Source: a virus. From it: a stretch of DNA of 26,077 nt. Below are positions 1,370 to 22,522 of the stretch, one piece after another. Position numbers and translations under genes: made by a program. The stretch lies in IMG/VR virus record IMGVR_UViG_3300002231_001505, positions 7,001 through 33,077 of that record, one strand, 5' to 3'. The notes beneath the pieces were generated by a model. It did not search any database. It had not been told where the DNA came from and worked only from the letters and a program-made list of their open reading frames with translations. The number at the start of each line of letters is the position of its first letter. Positions within the stretch are counted from its first letter, which is position 1.

Positions 1370-2068
1370 CTAGTGCATAAGTGCCAAGACTACTCCTGTT
1401 AGGCCGATAAGACCGGCAATGACAGTGCCAATACGCCAATAAAGCACATCGCTATCAGACGTGTGAAGTAATTGATTCTGCAAGGAATCAATTTTCCCCT
1501 GCATTTTACTGAATTGACCATTTAGTAGCATAGGTGGCTCCTCATCCTCATATGACCTCTGCATAATTTGAGAAGCTGTGTCGAAACTTTGGTGTACGTC
1601 TCCGTTTAACCGTAGTGTATTGAAGAACGAAACGGCAAAATTTTCTGCTGCCACATCATGCACGTCATCGCGCCATCCAATCACATAGGAAATTCCGCGA
1701 GCATGTAACGTGACGGCTGCTGGCAAAGACCTGCAAGCATTTAGGATAATGAGTTCTGTGCGGTTTTCGCCAATGGCTGAGGCCAGCATTTCAACAGCCA
1801 GTGGACCGTCGGATAACTCCAACTCCATACTATCGCCGTGTCCGGCGAAGTGCATAATGTCAAAATGTTGTCTACGAATAGTCGCCAGCACTTCCCGATG
1901 GGAAACAATGCCATGCAAGATTGTTGGCTGATTCCCGCCAGATGCAGTGATAAGTTCAGCAAGCACTTGCAACTCGGAGCCGGGCGCGATGATTAGGACG
2001 CTTGAACCATAGCCAAGCTGGTGATGTTCTTCAATATCCGCTTGGGATTCCCTGATTTCGTCAAACAT
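1370..2068 (-). CDS. CHAT-family caspase-like protease with C-terminal membrane anchor
   Basis: The predicted 232-residue protein (ATG at 2068) has the CHAT/caspase-like peptidase pattern. A strand VLIIAPGSELQVLAEL opens the fold. It is followed by the His motif IMHFAGHGD (likely catalytic His77) and the Cys motif LIILNACRS (likely catalytic Cys112), then GISYVIGWRDDVHD and FAVSFFNTL typical of the family C-terminus. A linker of about 50 residues includes a short coiled coil (KMQGKIDSLQNQLL). The last 20 residues (RIGTVIAGLIGLTGVVLAL) form a transmembrane anchor, so the protease would face the cytoplasm from the membrane. The frame is open further upstream to 2239, but those residues lie over the receiver gene and look non-native. 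The chosen ATG overlaps the receiver gene by 76 bases and has GGAAGGG upstream. CHAT proteases are common effectors in bacterial conflict and cell-death systems. Its role in a phage is unknown. Confidence 0.85.
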   Translation of the reverse strand: MFDEIRESQADIEEHHQLGYGSSVLIIAPGSELQVLAELITASGGNQPTILHGIVSHREVLATIRRQHFDIMHFAGHGDSMELELSDGPLAVEMLASAIGENRTELIILNACRSLPAAVTLHARGISYVIGWRDDVHDVAAENFAVSFFNTLRLNGDVHQSFDTASQIMQRSYEDEEPPMLLNGQFSKMQGKIDSLQNQLLHTSDSDVLYWRIGTVIAGLIGLTGVVLALMH

Positions 2069-2361
2069 TGGACCGGTAGCCCTTCCGCAAATTTTTGTAG
2101 TTCGCTTTGGGGCATAGCCGATAACAGAACTATAGGCGGCAAGGAATCCCCATATTTCTCGATAAATTGACGTGATAATTCTGCGCCATCGATCACCGGC
2201 ATCATAACATCGACAACAATCAAATCGTAGTACAACCAATTCATAACCTGGGCCGTGAATTGGTCCACTGCCATCAGTCTAATGTCTTCCATTAACTGTG
2301 CATTGTATTCAAACAAACGACGCTGACTTGCATCATCGTCAACCAATAATATCTTCAGCAC
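1993..2361 (-). CDS. Stand-alone response-regulator receiver domain protein
   Basis: The whole 122-residue protein is one CheY-like receiver domain with no output domain. It has the acidic triad D8-D9-D10 (LLVDDD), the phosphoacceptor Asp51 in LIVVDVMMPVIDG, the switch Ser81 in VLLSAMP, and the conserved Lys102 in CLTKSGN, where the usual Lys-Pro is Lys-Ser. All residues for phosphotransfer are present. The start is a GTG at 2361 with a good GAGGAG site 7 bases upstream. The gene overlaps the CHAT protease gene downstream, so the two are almost certainly co-translated. No histidine kinase lies in the window, so phosphorylation by a host kinase or a protein-docking role is inferred. Receivers are rare in phage late operons. 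Confidence 0.9.
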   Translation of the reverse strand: MLKILLVDDDASQRRLFEYNAQLMEDIRLMAVDQFTAQVMNWLYYDLIVVDVMMPVIDGAELSRQFIEKYGDSLPPIVLLSAMPQSELQKFAEGLPVQCLTKSGNPKRILKNITSLAMVQAS

Positions 2362-16551: not shown

Positions 16552-16929
16552 TTATTCCTCCATCAATTGACGGGCATTGGCCTGCCAACCCGCTATCATA
16601 TCGACTGTCACGTAGTTCAAACTTCCATCCAGCATTTCGTCAATTTCTTCTGGTGTTTTTTTGATAAGTGCATGAATGCTGTCGATTCCTTTTCCGAAAA
16701 GAGCATTCGCAGTTTGCTTACCGATGCCGCGAACCCGACGCAAATCACTGCCTTCTTCTGTCTTTGGTAAAGGAGCGTCAACAATTTCCCAAAATCCAGT
16801 TCCGAGTAATTTTGCGGCGACATTCTTCGATACTTCATACTCCCCTTGATACTCAATCGGTTCTGATTGAATAACGGGGACTTGTACATCATGGGTGAGA
16901 GCATTGGGATTGGTGTAACGTATTTTCAT
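16552..16929 (-). CDS. Helix-hairpin-helix protein in the neck/tail gene cluster, 125 aa
   Basis: The first 50 residues (MKIRYTNPNALTHDVQVP, then FWEIVDAPLP) look like a small virion-type beta domain. The second half holds a helix-hairpin-helix pair: LRRVRGIGKQTANALFGKGI at about residues 63-82, then STIHA-type and EEIDEMLDGSLNYVTVD helices. HhH motifs bind DNA backbone or serve as protein modules. Here, between the tail completion gene and the tail tube, the HhH may touch packaged DNA at the neck or simply serve as a structural fold. The gene overlaps the preceding gene by ATGA. Its actual role is unknown. Confidence 0.7.
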   Translation of the reverse strand: MKIRYTNPNALTHDVQVPVIQSEPIEYQGEYEVSKNVAAKLLGTGFWEIVDAPLPKTEEGSDLRRVRGIGKQTANALFGKGIDSIHALIKKTPEEIDEMLDGSLNYVTVDMIAGWQANARQLMEE

Positions 16930-17411
16930 GTCTCTGTCCTCACTATAATTGGGAGTACGCCAACGCCTCGAAATTTTCCTCCCTGCTGTCCCCCCAAAAC
17001 CTCCACCCGCATATCTGCAATCTGGGTGTCCATTACGGTCTCGCTAATCCCGCTTGATAGTCCACCTAGCGCAAAGCGAGAGCGAACCACCTCCCGCAAT
17101 CTTTGCACCAATTCTTGCGCATTGGCTTTGGCCGTGGCATAGGTTGTCTGTGCATCATCGACGCAAGCAATAAAGTAGCGATATTCGCTCAACACATAAA
17201 TGTTGCCATCACCGTGCGGACCTTGCTCGACCGGACGCACCGTATTAGAAAAGATAACTACGCTGGGCGGGTTGTATTCCGATGGCTTGAACGAATCAGA
17301 GAGCAGCACTTCATTGACAATCAATGTTCCATAACTTCCGGCACTGCCCATATCAGCCAGAATGTTGGTCAATAGATAATTGTCAATATCAGTCCAAAGA
17401 ACATCACTCAT
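16926..17411 (-). CDS. Tail completion / terminator-type protein, 161 aa
   Basis: The start is ATG 17411, which forms an ATGA overlap with the stop of the connector gene. Seven extra codons up to 17432 are also open but unlikely. The protein has a central alpha/beta pattern: VVIFSNTVRPVEQG, then YVLSEYRYFIACVDDAQTTYATAKANAQELVQRLREVV, the strand-helix order of the minor tail or tail terminator fold (gpU/gp17-like). It sits between the connector and the HhH gene, the usual position for a tail terminator. The call is by pattern and position. Confidence 0.65.
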   Translation of the reverse strand: MSDVLWTDIDNYLLTNILADMGSAGSYGTLIVNEVLLSDSFKPSEYNPPSVVIFSNTVRPVEQGPHGDGNIYVLSEYRYFIACVDDAQTTYATAKANAQELVQRLREVVRSRFALGGLSSGISETVMDTQIADMRVEVLGGQQGGKFRGVGVLPIIVRTET

Positions 17412-17866
17412 GTGCTGGTGTCTCTCACCCAATCCACAGTGTCAGGATGTGTATGTAAATCAACCGTGAAAGCAGGTTTTATCCTGTCGGTGTCGTCATC
17501 GTATGTATCTTTGTTCGCCTCGGAAATGCCACCGGCCCAGGGCGATACCAGATAGGAAGCAGCGCTCTCCATAGAAATGCCATCTACAGCCATCGCCTGC
17601 TTCTCTAGCCATGCGGCCAGTTTCCTGGCTGTTTCGGCGGCAGCATCCACGCTAACCTTCGCTTCGACCCATCGTCCTTGTCGCGCTGTGTCAAAGGAGA
17701 GCGTGCGCAGCGCCCAGGCCGCCGCTAGTCTCAAATTGTTGGATGGAGACTGATCGATGAATACTTGCAGTTCTTCATCAGTAAAGGCGGCATTGCTGAC
17801 ATTGGTGTCGTTGGCGTAGAGACGGGTTTTACCTATATCGTTCGCAGTGTCGTAGGTGGTTGTCAT
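17408..17866 (-). CDS. Head-tail connector / adaptor protein, gp6-like
   Basis: This 152-residue protein is helical. It opens with DIGKTRLYANDTNVSNAAFTDEELQVF and continues with NNLRLAAAWALRTLSFDTARQGRW, the pattern of DNA-packaging or head-tail adaptor proteins of the HK97 gp6 type: an N-terminal helix, 'F-x-D-E-E-L', then a long helical hairpin. It would form the ring that attaches to the portal. It has a GGGGTAGG site upstream and ends in an ATGA overlap with the tail completion gene. Confidence 0.8.
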   Translation of the reverse strand: MTTTYDTANDIGKTRLYANDTNVSNAAFTDEELQVFIDQSPSNNLRLAAAWALRTLSFDTARQGRWVEAKVSVDAAAETARKLAAWLEKQAMAVDGISMESAASYLVSPWAGGISEANKDTYDDDTDRIKPAFTVDLHTHPDTVDWVRDTST

Positions 17867-17869
17867 TGC

Positions 17870-17968
17870 CTACCCCAAATCAAAATCATCGAAGTTCACG
17901 CCCGGCGCAATGGCCATCAGCGCCTGGCGCACCGTAATCCCGGCCACATAATTATTGCGTGCGCTCAT
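17870..17968 (-). CDS. Tiny 32-aa ORF between head-accessory genes
   Basis: The frame starts at an ATG at 17968 inside the end of the gene before it and stops at TAG, three bases before the connector gene start. It encodes a compact sequence (MSARNNYVAGITVRQALMAI) followed by an acidic end. It fills the gap between its neighbours exactly, which argues for a real gene, but no family is known and 32 residues is little evidence. Confidence 0.4.
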   Translation of the reverse strand: MSARNNYVAGITVRQALMAIAPGVNFDDFDLG

Positions 17969-18146
17969 CAACTAGCCCCAGCATCGCAGTAAGTTGCTCA
18001 TCGGTAATGCCCGCCTGTGTCAATAGCGTTTCAATTAGCTGTACGTCAACCAGCGACGCATCGGCAGGAATCGCCGTATCATCCCCTGCGCCCCGATCTA
18101 AATCTGCCACGATTTTCCCACCCCGAATGTATCTGAAAATTGCCAT
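17952..18146 (-). CDS. Small head-associated hypothetical protein, 64 aa
   Basis: This is a short protein with an ATG at 18146 and an AGGGTGAAAT site upstream. It opens MAIFRYIRGGKIVADLDRG, a start typical of small phage head proteins that follow capsid accessory genes. The C-terminal half is an acidic helix (VDVQLIETLLTQAGITDEQL). It overlaps the 32-aa ORF downstream by 17 bases. Function unknown. Confidence 0.6.
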   Translation of the reverse strand: MAIFRYIRGGKIVADLDRGAGDDTAIPADASLVDVQLIETLLTQAGITDEQLTAMLGLVDERTQ

Positions 18147-18163
18147 ATTTCACCCTATGCTGT

Positions 18164-19153
18164 CTATGCCGTGTATGTGATTGCCCATTTTTTGAAGCCC
18201 TCTGCGTCTGGATCATTTACCAATTTGTAAATATATTCTTTTCCTGTCGTGGGTGGAGTCGCATCCGCGTATGTGCCACTCGGCGCTGGATTTGTCCCAC
18301 CAACTGACAGCACCGGCGACGCGTAGAGAAACGATGCACGATCACTGTACAGGCGACTCACGCAGCTATCCACATTGGATTGGCTCATTGTCATGCTGTA
18401 AATTTGTAGATTATATATATTGACAGCCGCCATCGCCGTGCCGCCTCCGGTAATGGTGCTGCTGGTATTGCCGAGATGCAAATATGTCATCGACGACGGT
18501 AAATCAGCCAGCGCTCCGGTAATGGTGCTGCTGGTATTGTAGAGATACAAATTTGTCATCGAAGCGGGCAAATCAGCAAGCGCTCCGGTAATGGTGCTGC
18601 TGGTACTGTAGAGATACAAATTTGTCATCGAAGCGGGCAAATCACCAAGCGCTCCGGTGATGGTGCTGCTGGTACTGTCGAGATACAAATTTGTCATCGA
18701 AGCGGGCAAATCAGCAAACGCTCCGGTAATGGTGCTGCTGGTACTGCCGAGATGCAAATATGTCATCGAAGCGGGCAAATCAGCAAGCGCTCCGGTACCG
18801 GCCAATGCTGAATTAGAGTATGCCGATAACGTCGTCAGACTCGTATAGGTCGTCAAATCAGCCAGGTGCAACGAGCCGCCAAGCGACTGACTGTACATGT
18901 TGATAGCGGTCACGGCACCCGGGTTGGGACAATACAGCTTAATCGTCGTCGTGCCCGACACCGCTACCGACGGTGAGTTTGTGACATAACTGACACCACC
19001 GATCACCCACGTCACAATACTACCGTCATTTGTGGTGACGGTCGGGTTGAATGTCCCCGTTTTGGTGGTGTAGTTGTCGCGCAGAAGCCAGGACAGCACG
19101 AAGCTGGCCGTTCCAAAATTTCGATTACGTACTGCCGCCACGGGATAAGACAT
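18164..19153 (-). CDS. Leucine-rich-repeat protein in the virion gene cluster, 329 aa
   Basis: Residues about 1-115 are a beta-rich N-terminal region (VTWVIGGVSYVTNSPSVAV, then TTTIKLYCPNPGAVTAINM). Five regular 23-residue leucine-rich repeats follow, with the core LADLPxSMTxLxL then T-S-S-T-I-T-G, then a non-repetitive tail ending YIYKLVNDPDAEGFKKWAITY. The repeats are 69 bp each at DNA level. Between units, the residues that change lie at the surface-facing x positions after SMT (Y or N; H or Y; G, D or Y; S or N), while the structural leucines stay fixed. LRR folds bind proteins or glycans. The position among head-accessory genes suggests a capsid-surface adhesion or decoration protein. 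A host-receptor role is possible but not shown. Confidence 0.8.
   Translation of the reverse strand: MSYPVAAVRNRNFGTASFVLSWLLRDNYTTKTGTFNPTVTTNDGSIVTWVIGGVSYVTNSPSVAVSGTTTIKLYCPNPGAVTAINMYSQSLGGSLHLADLTTYTSLTTLSAYSNSALAGTGALADLPASMTYLHLGSTSSTITGAFADLPASMTNLYLDSTSSTITGALGDLPASMTNLYLYSTSSTITGALADLPASMTNLYLYNTSSTITGALADLPSSMTYLHLGNTSSTITGGGTAMAAVNIYNLQIYSMTMSQSNVDSCVSRLYSDRASFLYASPVLSVGGTNPAPSGTYADATPPTTGKEYIYKLVNDPDAEGFKKWAITYTA
18444..18796. repeat. Five tandem 69-bp repeats (LRR-coding)
   Basis: Units beginning with the word GCTCCGGT lie at 18513, 18582, 18651, 18720 and 18789, exactly 69 bases apart, with a slightly diverged first boundary (GCCTCCGG) near 18444. They encode 23-residue leucine-rich repeats. 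Differences between units are concentrated in a few codons and the rest is nearly identical. Confidence 0.9.
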
Positions 19154-19156
19154 TAC

Positions 19157-19528
19157 CTAAGACTCCGAATAGTACGTGACAGTTAGCGCGACATTGCCAG
19201 CCACACTTGCTTTCGCCGTCAACTTCTTATCGGCTGTTGCTAACTTTATCTTGCCACGAGGGGTAATCTGCACCGTGCCATTGGCAGGCAGAAATACTTT
19301 GAAAATGTCAGTGCCACTCGTCTCTTCTTCAAATAGAATATCCATCGCTGTATCTGCGCTGGCGATAATATCCACAATGATAAGTTTCTCTCCACTTGTC
19401 GGTGCGTCTGTCACGGCAGCGGCTGTCGTCATGTCCGCAGAAACTACAGAAGCGGACGAGACGCCAAAGCTGGTTGTGTAGGCGGGGCCAAAGTCGAGTG
19501 TCAGCGCTCGTGTACCAAATAATGCCAT
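19157..19528 (-). CDS. Head-accessory beta protein, 123 aa
   Basis: This 123-residue protein has an alternating beta pattern (KLIIVDIIASADTAMDILFEEE, then VFLPANGTVQITPRGKIKL and AGNVALTVTYY) and no helices of note. A GGAGGGA site precedes the ATG. The pattern is that of small jelly-roll or Ig-like phage surface proteins that decorate the head or the tail shaft. It sits between the HhH gene and the LRR gene. Function is inferred only from fold-like appearance and position. Confidence 0.6.
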   Translation of the reverse strand: MALFGTRALTLDFGPAYTTSFGVSSASVVSADMTTAAAVTDAPTSGEKLIIVDIIASADTAMDILFEEETSGTDIFKVFLPANGTVQITPRGKIKLATADKKLTAKASVAGNVALTVTYYSES

Positions 19529-19855
19529 TTATATTCCCTCCGTGTCCAACAGAAACGCTGCCTTAATTCGTTTCGCCGTTGCTCGACCAATTCCAGGAAT
19601 GTCAACCAATTCCTTGATGGTCGCCGCACCAATCAGTTCACGCAGGGTGGCAGGCTGAATTTCAGTCTTTGCTGTCTGCATTCCTGGGATTCCATTCAAG
19701 AAAGCGGAAATTGCCTCTATGGTTCGCCAAAACTCAATGTCGATGTCGCCACCGGCAGGCAACATAAACCGAGGTTTGGAAAGACCGTGCGCAGAGGCAA
19801 TTTCCGCCGCTATTTGTTCACATTGGCGGACAGCGTTGAAGCTGCGTTCATTCAT
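19529..19855 (-). CDS. Helix-hairpin-helix protein in the head gene cluster, 108 aa
   Basis: The protein is helical. A helix-hairpin-helix motif lies at the end (ELVDIPGIGRATAKRIKAAF, about residues 82-101), preceded by a helical region with TLRELIGAATI. HhH is usually a DNA-backbone-binding motif. The ATG at 19855 has an AGGAG site. It is the first of two HhH proteins in this late operon; the second lies at 16552-16929. A structural or DNA-end-binding role in the head is possible. The family is not recognised beyond the motif. Confidence 0.7.
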   Translation of the reverse strand: MNERSFNAVRQCEQIAAEIASAHGLSKPRFMLPAGGDIDIEFWRTIEAISAFLNGIPGMQTAKTEIQPATLRELIGAATIKELVDIPGIGRATAKRIKAAFLLDTEGI

Positions 19856-20791: not shown

Positions 20792-20831
20792 ATAGGTATC
20801 GTGTCATCTAAATAACCGAAAGGATATGAAT

Positions 20832-21548
20832 ATGGTTCTCACAAAAGAATGCTTGACATGCGGCAAAACATTTGAAAAACCGTCATCGTGTAGCCTCAAG
20901 GAATGGAACACAACACGAAAATTCTGCTCAAAAAGATGTGCTTATGATTATCCAAACAAGAAACCTTCACCCTTCAAGGGGACAAAATCAACCAAACCAA
21001 GTGTTATGCAGTATTTGCCGTGTAGAATTTGTGGTGAACCGACTAGGTATCCCGGAACTCCACACAGTAGATTATATGGCATGGTGCGCTGCTCAAAACC
21101 GGAATGTATTGAAGCATCCCGCAAACTCAAAAACGAAAACATTAGCAAGAAAGCAAAGGAGATGTACGCGAATGGAGAACGAGTTGCACCTGATAATGCT
21201 TGGTCCAAAGTACAGAGAATCAGTAAAGAAGAAAAACTTATCTCTCCGTGGCTAGAATCTCTTGAATTTGTTCCCCAATTCAAGTTCCTAACTAACGTCC
21301 ACACAAACAAACTCCCTAGAATGTTTCGTCTTGATTTTGCATTACCAGAGCACAATCTTTATATCGAGATTGATGGAAGCGTACATAGATTCAGAAAAGA
21401 ACGTGATGCTCGACGCGATTCCATGATGAAAGAAAGAGGGTGGATCGGATTGCGAATTCCATCCAATTCCATCAATTCTGACATCGATAGTGTCAAACAG
21501 CGTGTTTTATCCTGGATGCAAAAGCACATATCCACCAACTCCCCGTAA
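20832..21548 (+). CDS. Free-standing homing-type endonuclease, zinc-finger plus PD-(D/E)XK (DUF559/Vsr-like)
   Basis: The start ATG 20832 is preferred over the ATG at 20826 because the AAAGGA site lies at a proper 7-base distance from it. The 238-residue protein has two Cys4-type zinc sites (C7, C10, C32, C36 and C64, C67, C87, C92). Its C-terminal nuclease domain carries RLDFALPEHNLYIEIDGSVH, with Asp168, Glu179, Asp181 and His185 as likely metal and catalytic residues, then ERDARRDSMMKERGW. This resembles DUF559/Vsr-like endonucleases, several of which are homing enzymes of phages. The gene lies on the opposite strand inside a head operon, between the capsid gene and a head-accessory gene, the usual state of an intronless homing gene. 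It probably cuts related phages that lack the gene at this locus. Confidence 0.85.
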   Translation: MVLTKECLTCGKTFEKPSSCSLKEWNTTRKFCSKRCAYDYPNKKPSPFKGTKSTKPSVMQYLPCRICGEPTRYPGTPHSRLYGMVRCSKPECIEASRKLKNENISKKAKEMYANGERVAPDNAWSKVQRISKEEKLISPWLESLEFVPQFKFLTNVHTNKLPRMFRLDFALPEHNLYIEIDGSVHRFRKERDARRDSMMKERGWIGLRIPSNSINSDIDSVKQRVLSWMQKHISTNSP

Positions 21549-21556
21549 GCAAAACG

Positions 21557-22522
21557 TCAGGCCACCGCGCCGTTATAGAAATACCCTAAATCAGAGCCAA
21601 CAACCTTATCGTCAAAGGCGCATTCGCCTTCGATACGGTCGCATTTGAGTGTAGGCACGTCAAAACGAGAAATTCCGATGTCCGCACCGGCAATACCGTT
21701 TGCCACACCGCGCCAACTAAAGACATAGCCAGCGGAAGGGGCCAGAAGACTCGGACGCGGGTTCACGTAGCAGAGCAGGGCGTGTTTGCCATGCGTAAAG
21801 GAGTAGGCCGCAGTCTCGCCTTCGACGTTGGTCGCCTTGACAGCCTTCGCCACATAAACATTGTCCAGCCCAAAGAGGGCTGCGATCATGGACTCGGTGA
21901 CGTTGTTATTGACCATGTTGACGGTGTACTTGACGCGGTCAATGATGTCCGGGTGGTTTTTGAGATACCGGAACGTTTCGTATCCCAGAACCAGGGTGTT
22001 GGGCTCGAAGCCAGTAACGGACAAGATTGCAGATTTGCCCGTCTCGATGTCATCAATCGGATCAGAGGTGGTGTATGCACTCCACAAGTTACTGGGCGTA
22101 CTGTCAGTGCCCCAGACGCTTGTGGTGAAGTAGTCTGACACCCATTGGATTTCCCGGCGCAGCATAAGACGCTGCGTCACGAATTCGGTGGCGTCCCGGT
22201 CCAGGTTGATTCCTGCGTCAGCATTGTTGCGGGCCTGATAGCCAATATCCTTGTGAATGGCATAGAGATCACAAGAATAGGAGGCTGTACTCAGTCCGTA
22301 ACCGCTGCCCGCCGATTCTGTGCCATCGGCACGGGGCTGGGCTTCATCGCGGAACCAGTCGTTCTTGGTGTACGTGTAGTATTTGTCCGTCTGTTTTTCA
22401 ACAGGGACGACAGGGAACACCTTGTCCGCAATGAAGTTCGTCTGGCTCTGAATATAAGCAGTACTGATGTTCGTCAGCGGAACATCGACAGCGTGTACTG
22501 CTTGTGCAGTTGGTTGTGCCAT
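21557..22522 (-). CDS. Major capsid protein, 321 aa
   Basis: This gene follows the decoration gene and precedes the endonuclease insertion. The protein opens with VPLTNISTAYIQSQTNFIADKVFPVVPVEKQTDKYYTYTKNDW, typical of phage coat proteins. It continues with RADGTESAGSGYGLSTASY, a long helix FVTQRLMLRREIQWVSDYF, and NTLVLGYETFRYLKNHPDI, matching the P and A domains of HK97-type capsid proteins. The C-terminal half has the usual beta-rich A domain. The ATG has a GAAAGGAA site. Position after portal, protease/scaffold and decoration genes supports the call. The main uncertainty is which capsid subfamily it belongs to. Confidence 0.85.
   Translation of the reverse strand: MAQPTAQAVHAVDVPLTNISTAYIQSQTNFIADKVFPVVPVEKQTDKYYTYTKNDWFRDEAQPRADGTESAGSGYGLSTASYSCDLYAIHKDIGYQARNNADAGINLDRDATEFVTQRLMLRREIQWVSDYFTTSVWGTDSTPSNLWSAYTTSDPIDDIETGKSAILSVTGFEPNTLVLGYETFRYLKNHPDIIDRVKYTVNMVNNNVTESMIAALFGLDNVYVAKAVKATNVEGETAAYSFTHGKHALLCYVNPRPSLLAPSAGYVFSWRGVANGIAGADIGISRFDVPTLKCDRIEGECAFDDKVVGSDLGYFYNGAVA

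What the first reader, a model, noticed from the sequence alone, without database searches (positions are those of the whole stretch)
18164..19153. Leucine-rich-repeat protein inside the virion gene block, with exact 69-bp repeats varying at surface positions
Seen: five 23-residue LRR units coded by tandem 69-bp repeats. Structural positions are fixed, while positions after SMT change between Y/N, H/Y, G/D/Y and S/N. Known: LRR surfaces are common binding faces, and tandem repeats allow copy-number change by recombination. Inference: a virion-surface adhesin with a tunable binding face. LRR proteins are unusual among head-accessory genes.
Basis: partly seen in the sequence, partly recalled or inferred. 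Interest (0 to 1): 0.5.

Follow-up and report, generated by a model that had tools for sequence, protein, structure and literature searches.

The report
Phage adhesin with variable repeat face
An uncultured phage carries, among its particle-building genes, a repeat protein whose repeats share one framework but differ at the residues lining a likely binding face, and related genes with the same pattern turn up in other uncultured phages, which looks like a swappable phage tool for sticking to targets, though binding and presence in the particle are not shown.

Summary
The 329-aa minus-strand ORF at 18164-19153 has five 23-residue leucine-rich repeats (69-bp period; similar, not exact), varying mainly at unit positions 12, 14, 16 and 17. 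AlphaFold2 (pLDDT 86-98 there) puts 12, 14 and 16 in the five strands of an LRR solenoid. A conserved C-terminal cap identifies 15 viral records (one the same population). Against stretches of 12 relatives, the window shows convincing similarity only in this gene and, in two, the next small gene; one of them, with a different portal, shares a 1.15-kb block at 89.8% DNA identity. In eight arrays strand-exposed positions vary in 35 of 40, framework in 15 of 131; pooled within-array pN/pS is 1.54 against 0.18 (seven arrays). Complete arrays have 4-7 units. Best reading: a virion-associated adhesin whose LRR face is under diversifying selection and whose arrays are reshuffled by recombination. Virion location is inferred from gene position; ligand unknown. 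Against: one relative has a signal-like N-terminus, the same-population array is identical, and window-L003 exposed sites look neutral (1.02). LRR proteins are annotated in other phages; my searches found no account of this family. New variant of a known kind.

The parts
18164..19153 (-). LRR protein gene, 329 aa plus stop
   Evidence: LRR fold by AlphaFold2 and VIA-align Z up to 17.5 against solved LRR chains
18869..19066 (-). N-terminal beta region (about residues 30-95); aligned relatives L014 and L017 carry a PKD domain here
   Evidence: alignment; PKD above Pfam cut-off in L014 and L017 but no PKD match in the window protein itself; model confidence under 50 for residues 1-74
18725..18793 (-). 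LRR unit 1 (residues 121-143)
18656..18724 (-). LRR unit 2 (residues 144-166)
18587..18655 (-). LRR unit 3 (residues 167-189)
18518..18586 (-). LRR unit 4 (residues 190-212)
18449..18517 (-). LRR unit 5 (residues 213-235)
18167..18448 (-). conserved C-terminal cap (residues 236-329), the family signature
   Evidence: alignment of 12 sequences; query region
17952..18146 (-). small companion gene, 64 aa, directly downstream
   Evidence: relatives downstream of the LRR gene in L003, L014, L016 and weakly L012
17940..19091 (.). DNA block shared with L003 at 89.8% identity, flanked by sequence without detected similarity apart from a short tail at 17867-17899
19157..19528 (-). small upstream gene, 123 aa, no convincing family match; a small gene also lies upstream of the LRR gene in several relatives
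   Evidence: positions in relatives read
21557..22522 (-). major head protein (context)
   Evidence: phrog_1005 E 7e-93
17408..17866 (-). next gene downstream, phrog_1732, function unknown (context)
   Evidence: E 4.7e-15

Best explanation
The gene encodes a virion-associated adhesin or receptor-binding accessory protein: an N-terminal beta domain, an LRR solenoid whose strand (concave) face binds a ligand, and a conserved C-terminal cap. Fold and cap are conserved; residues on the strand face are diversified by selection. Repeats expand, contract and homogenise by recombination within the array, and the gene, sometimes with a small companion gene, moves between phages as a cassette. Shown: anatomy, the family, placement among structural genes in most loci viewed, position-specific variation, one shared cassette between otherwise dissimilar contigs. 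Inferred: virion attachment, ligand binding, recombination as the source of new arrays. Unknown: the ligand (a host-surface molecule or an environmental glycan is my guess).
For: LRR fold predicted with pLDDT 86-98 over the array, Z up to 17.5 to solved LRRs. In 8 arrays 35 of 40 strand-exposed positions vary against 15 of 131 framework positions (Fisher p 2.5e-19); a five-position mask slid through 22 registers covers 32 of 35 in register and at most 19 of 35 elsewhere (7 arrays). Pooled pN/pS 1.54 exposed (bootstrap over 7 arrays 1.05-3.45) against 0.18 framework (0.09-0.31), with similar pooled pS (0.227 and 0.214). Seven complete arrays have 4, 5, 5, 6, 7, 7 and 7 units. Central units within an array resemble each other: window units 2-4 differ by 2-4, L003 units 2-4 by 2-5, the one set from the other by 10-13 of 69. 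In L015 two unit types recur interspersed. Window and L003 share the block 17940-19091 and no other convincing similarity, although the window has a Mu-type portal (PF06074, 1.9e-30) and L003 a portal of another PHROG (phrog_10963, 8.2e-20). Structural, packaging or tail-spike genes confirmed by profile in 10 of 15 neighbourhoods. CBM_5_12 carbohydrate-binding modules in the downstream gene of L022 and L023 (99.2 and 89.8 bits). A distant LRR protein on an Ilyobacter plasmid lies in a phage tail gene cluster after Tail_P2_I and shares a 68-aa, 51% identical segment with a neighbouring tail-fibre-like protein.
Against: No proteomics and no binding data. L023's protein and its two neighbours, and a gene upstream of the LRR gene in L018, start with signal-like sequences (by eye), which does not fit simple cytoplasmic virion assembly there. 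The same-population contig L002 has an identical array, so no ongoing variation was seen. LRR proteins in general keep framework and vary at exposed sites, so the position pattern alone is not special; only the ratio above 1 is, its lower bound is 1.05, arrays are 7 and unit pairs are not independent. L015 alone has 0.81, with exposed pS 0.438 against framework 0.126. Window versus L003 exposed sites give 1.02, that is, neutral. End units break the homogenisation pattern: window unit 5 is nearer L003 unit 1 (6 differences) than window units 2-4 (9-11). L003 is a 9-kb contig with undetermined bases; a misassembly at its joins is not excluded. The window protein misses the Pfam FNIP cut-off (20.2 against 21) and has no PKD match.
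Confidence: 0.58

Rival explanations
1. Ordinary LRR evolution: slippage makes repeats, the fold fixes the framework, and exposed sites drift under relaxed constraint with no binding role under selection.
For: Framework conservation is what any LRR requires. Window versus L003 exposed pN/pS is 1.02 and the pooled lower bound only 1.05; L015 is 0.81. Same-population contig identical.
Against: Pooled within-array exposed pN/pS 1.54, above 1 in 6 of 7 arrays (window: 30 nonsynonymous and no synonymous differences), with similar pooled pS in both site classes. Eight arrays with different unit sequences show the same strand-site pattern.
Confidence: 0.2
2. A secreted or cell-surface moron made during infection or lysogeny (host-cell adhesin, superinfection exclusion or interaction factor), not part of the virion.
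For: Signal-like N-termini in L023 and its neighbours (by eye). Phage-encoded effectors exist: the listing shows an abstract on phage-encoded GogB, which I recall as an LRR protein. The cassette shared with L003 is moron-like.
Against: The window protein shows no signal peptide to the eye. Structural or packaging genes lie nearby in 10 of 15 neighbourhoods. In 369 genomes sampled from the class of L012's host genome the cap was found only in that genome, itself a source of the query.
Confidence: 0.14
3. A reverse-transcriptase-driven diversity-generating system acts on the array.
For: Variable codons are mostly NAY, GGY or AGY types, with ATT, CAG and TCC as exceptions; in L015 several bases change per exposed codon while the framework stays nearly identical.
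Against: No RVT_1 match in the own record or in any of 13 viral records; exposed and framework pS similar when pooled. Records may be fragments, so this is not final.
Confidence: 0.04

Closest known systems
Lamprey variable lymphocyte receptors (VLR)
   Same: LRR modules with variability concentrated on the concave surface; diversity by insertion of LRR-encoding modules through a gene-conversion-like process (passages of PMC3900441)
   Different: No sign of somatic assembly from donor cassettes; cap not cysteine-rich; phage gene; diversity seen between units and between phages, not within one individual
Plant NLR and receptor-kinase LRR domains
   Same: Variability at LxxLxLxx positions is used to predict binding sites (passages of PMC8226289); solved-structure matches include plant receptor LRRs
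   Different: No signalling domain seen; small, near-identical DNA repeats
BspA-type/DUF285 LRR proteins in phages (Synechococcus phage S-CBWM1 gp93, annotated 'putative tail protein'; Vibrio phage pir03 ORF 287)
   Same: gp93: PKD domain plus a 75-bp near-identical repeat array with variable residues, in a region with tail fibre genes. pir03: a BspA-family LRR surface protein annotated in a phage genome (table passage of PMC7765460)
   Different: gp93 matches DUF285 and PKD above and LRR_5 below cut-off; its C-terminus only weakly resembles the cap (hhalign probability 3%, E 0.014)
Ilyobacter polytropus plasmid LRR protein (WP_013388360.1) in a phage tail gene cluster
   Same: Five LRR units, 43% identity over 116 residues to the window array
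   Different: Different N- and C-termini; carries a segment shared with a neighbouring fibre-like protein
DGR-variable phage receptor-binding proteins (C-type lectin fold; recalled)
   Same: Same proposed purpose: a constant scaffold with a variable binding face
   Different: LRR scaffold; no reverse transcriptase found

Membership tests
LRR superfamily | 20-30 residue repeats with LxxLxL motif forming a strand solenoid | tested here: met
   23-residue units with MTxLxLxxT; predicted strands in register; Z 17.5, rmsd 3.6, 229 aligned to an LRR domain
Pfam LRR or FNIP models | score over the curated cut-off | tested here: inconclusive
   Window: FNIP 20.2 against 21, not met; L003: FNIP 23.2, met; L017 and L022: LRR_4 met
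This phage cap family | C-terminal cap homologous over about 90 residues | tested here: met
   alignment of 12
PKD-domain proteins | PKD match in the N-terminal domain | tested here: not met
   no match in the window protein; met in L014 and L017
VLR | variability concentrated on the concave strand face | tested here: met
   across units of an array, not alleles
VLR | disulfide-rich LRRCT cap (feature partly recalled) | tested here: not met
   cap alignment shows one cysteine column shared by several members and none conserved throughout
VLR | somatic assembly from donor cassettes | not testable with these tools
   needs read-level or experimental data
DGR target protein | linked reverse transcriptase | tested here: inconclusive
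   none in own record or 13 viral records; records may be fragments
Virion structural protein | present in purified particles | not testable with these tools
   only gene neighbourhood available

The most novel reading that the evidence does not exclude
A phage counterpart of the lamprey receptor principle: a transferable LRR cassette in which constant framework modules carrying different binding faces are duplicated, shuffled and homogenised by recombination, without a reverse transcriptase, giving phages a fast way to change what their particles stick to.
Probability: 0.3. Interest if true: 0.75.

Novelty: new variant of a known kind. Interest (0 to 1): 0.55.

Why it matters
Phage adhesins with changeable faces are known to me mainly from tail fibres and DGR-modified lectin folds (recalled). 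An LRR scaffold with diversified strand residues, changing repeat number and transfer between dissimilar phages would be another solution to the same problem, directly testable by read-level variation and virion proteomics, and a source of natural binding scaffolds.

Tried and rejected
DGR: looked for RVT_1 in the own record and 14 further records; only the MAG behind L012 has any. Cultured phages: tblastn of the window protein, its cap, L012 and L009 gave no match and L003 three weak ones (E 0.2-3); L015 gave seven weak records, among them S-CBWM1 (E 0.04), and L022 two unannotated Listeria phage records over LRR residues only. Plasmids: 21 records with LRR hits, many YopM, which I did not fetch; only the Ilyobacter record was opened. 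Cap profile against PDB sequences: none at E up to 1. Cap in 369 genomes of the class of L012's host genome: only that genome. A BFVD match, A0A1P8DJI5 (77 aa, 60% identity), has no name in the tool and was not followed. The companion scan returned only L014 and L016 and missed L003 and the window's population, so it says nothing about absence. The first AlphaFold2 run with 2 sequences was poor after residue 230 (pLDDT 60.7 overall) and was replaced by the 12-sequence run. The Ilyobacter array, run for comparison with a 21-position unit although its period is 22, shows exposed 22 nonsynonymous and 0 synonymous, framework 43 and 43. An uncultured-phage hit (H24) has no annotation and was not followed. 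Rows dropped: the array test used 8 arrays; L012, L017, L018, L019 and L021 (no near-identical array seen) and L004, L020, L032, L035 (fragments) were left out; L009 (two units) was also left out; last units were counted only over their first 9 positions. L019 was not in the tblastx test, which used the fetched stretches, not whole contigs.

Paper searches: nothing in the listings or in the passages opened describes this family; lists were capped, and the library lacks preprints and most subscription papers. Passages, not whole texts, were read in PMC11476376, PMC9027636, PMC8226289, PMC3900441, PMC12750041, PMC7765460 and PMC9836353; all other papers were seen as listing only.

Full report
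What was checked. The ORF at 18164-19153 (minus strand, 329 aa) is open and starts with ATG. The window has one tandem array, 18445-18797, period 69, 5.1 copies. The five 23-residue units differ pairwise at 2-11 of 69 bases, so 'exact repeats' is too strong. Amino-acid differences fall at unit positions 12 (Y/N), 14 (H/Y), 16 (G/D/Y) and 17 (S/N), with others at 3, 4 and 8.

Where it lies. The window is 7001-33077 of a 33,077-base virus record. Upstream of the gene are a major head protein (phrog_1005, 7e-93), a phrog_673 protein (2e-18, labelled head scaffolding) and a Mu-type portal (PF06074, 1.9e-30); downstream is a phrog_1732 protein of unknown function.

Relatives. Searching with the whole protein found three viral records. 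One (L002) is the same population: 15,917 aligned columns, no mismatches, 7 gap openings, identical protein and array. The second (L003) is a 9,054-base contig of the same metagenome number; it shares window 17940-19091 at 89.8% DNA identity with one gap, and has terminase genes and a portal of another PHROG beside it. The third (L004) begins inside its LRR gene, so only the last repeat region and the cap could be compared. Searches with the cap then reached distant members: the union is 15 viral records, L002 included. L012, a contig of a Methylococcaceae MAG, came from the genome collection and L009, cut off before most of any cap, from the repeat query. Tblastx of the window and of the first 8 kb of its record against the fetched stretches of 12 relatives found convincing similarity only in the LRR gene and, in L003 and L014, the following small gene; other listed pieces were short and weak.

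Family anatomy. N-terminal domains differ: PKD in L014 and L017 (above Pfam cut-off); a region like 'TGGxxWTDNTNW' in L009, L012, L021, L022 and L023 (I recall it as an LRR N-cap); a fibre-J-like stretch in L009 (phrog_31, 4.1e-6). The repeats follow, then the cap. Downstream, related small genes occur in window, L003, L014, L016 and weakly L012 (window-L014 2e-6, L014-L016 1e-84, L012-L014 0.003; these E-values are for a database of 8 sequences with composition correction off; alignment). L022 and L023 have mutually related downstream genes (8e-71) with two CBM_5_12 modules each.

Gene context. Of 15 neighbourhoods viewed (window, L003, L004, L009, L012, L014, L015, L016, L017, L018, L019, L021, L022, L023, L035) a head, packaging, connector, virion-structural or tail-spike protein was confirmed by profile in 10 (window, L003, L004, L009, L012, L014, L016, L018, L021, L035). 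In the other five there was no such match among the proteins I scanned: L015 has an upstream glycosyltransferase, L022 a protease, L022 and L023 weak tail-fibre matches of the downstream gene, L019 unknown families, and of L017's neighbours only one was scanned, without match. L020's neighbours were not viewed; L032 gave no recognisable context.

Structure. Strands 132-138, 155-159, 178-182, 201-205 and 224-228 hold unit positions 12, 14 and 16; the 2-sequence model has nearly the same strands. Solved LRR domains align with Z up to 17.5. Alternation in a strand places 12, 14 and 16 on one face, with the fixed leucines on the other (inference).

Variation test. Exposed sites were defined as the x positions of LxxLxLxxT before any model was in hand (precedes). 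Over 8 arrays 35 of 40 exposed and 15 of 131 framework positions vary (Fisher p 2.5e-19). Sliding the mask through 22 registers over 7 arrays gives 32 of 35 in register and 19 or fewer elsewhere. Nei-Gojobori proportions pooled over 7 arrays: exposed pS 0.227, pN 0.351; framework pS 0.214, pN 0.039; ratios 1.54 and 0.18, bootstrap intervals over arrays 1.05-3.45 and 0.09-0.31. Similar pooled pS suggests that selection is enough and no targeted mutator is needed, though L015 alone has exposed pS 0.438 against 0.126. By array the exposed ratio is infinite (window, no synonymous difference), 2.09 (L003), 1.70 (L014), 0.81 (L015), 1.35 (L016), 5.62 (L022) and 3.02 (L023). Caveats: unit pairs are not independent, arrays are few, and the assignment in L016 (xWxLxx, 25-residue unit) rests on analogy.

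Array dynamics. Window units 2-4 differ by 2-4, L003 units 2-4 by 2-5, and the two sets from each other by 10-13 of 69; but end units break the pattern, window unit 5 being nearer to L003 unit 1 (6) than to window units 2-4 (9-11). Between window and L003 the N flank differs at 13 of 297 bases, the C flank at 17 of 285, the repeats at 53 of 345; synonymous divergence is 0.09-0.10 in the flanks and 0.33 in the repeat framework. Homogenisation of the central units in each array (concerted evolution) would give this. In L015 the first six units run A A B C A C with nearly identical frameworks, which suggests shuffling.

Interpretation. The best reading is a virion-associated adhesin with a diversified LRR face in a mobile cassette. 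The carbohydrate-binding downstream gene in two relatives, the fibre-J-like stretch in L009, the cyanophage protein gp93 in a region with tail fibre genes and the Ilyobacter case, where an LRR protein lies in a phage tail gene cluster and shares a 68-residue segment with a fibre-like neighbour, point to adhesion. Against a virion role stand the signal-like N-termini in L023 and its neighbours. The neutral rival is not excluded: exposed sites between window and L003 give 1.02.

Novelty. LRR proteins are annotated or recognisable in phages (S-CBWM1 gp93 by Pfam match, pir03 ORF 287, several BFVD entries), so LRRs in phages are not new. The ten paper searches showed no account of this cap family, its diversified arrays or its exchange in the listings and passages I saw; the library lacks preprints and most subscription papers. 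I rate it a new variant of a known kind, interest 0.55.

Noticed in passing
window 1370-2361 (-): A CHAT-domain ORF (PF12770, 6.4e-11) overlaps a response-regulator receiver ORF (PF00072, 2.8e-10), an odd pair in a phage record.
   Followed up: no
window 20826-21548 (+): A 240-aa DUF559-type putative endonuclease lies on the opposite strand inside the head gene block.
   Followed up: no
window 16552-16929 and 19529-19855 (-): Two proteins of the structural block end in helix-hairpin-helix-like motifs; Pfam confirms the second, the first was seen by eye.
   Followed up: no
L009:452-2626: A Mu F-like head protein carries an intein (PF14890, 5.4e-10), with a 352-aa minus-strand ORF inside it.
   Followed up: no
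L023:4143-6941: Three consecutive genes, the LRR gene in the middle, start with signal-like sequences (by eye); a gene upstream of the LRR gene in L018 (2228-3586) does too.
   Followed up: partly
L015:437-2344: A large glycosyltransferase-type gene (phrog_2170, 7.3e-36) lies upstream of the LRR gene.
   Followed up: no
window 17870-17971 (-): A 33-aa ORF after the companion gene; its end is similar in L003, which lacks its middle.
   Followed up: no
L040:1060-3540: A phage tail gene cluster on an Ilyobacter plasmid holds an LRR protein sharing a segment with a fibre-like neighbour.
   Followed up: partly
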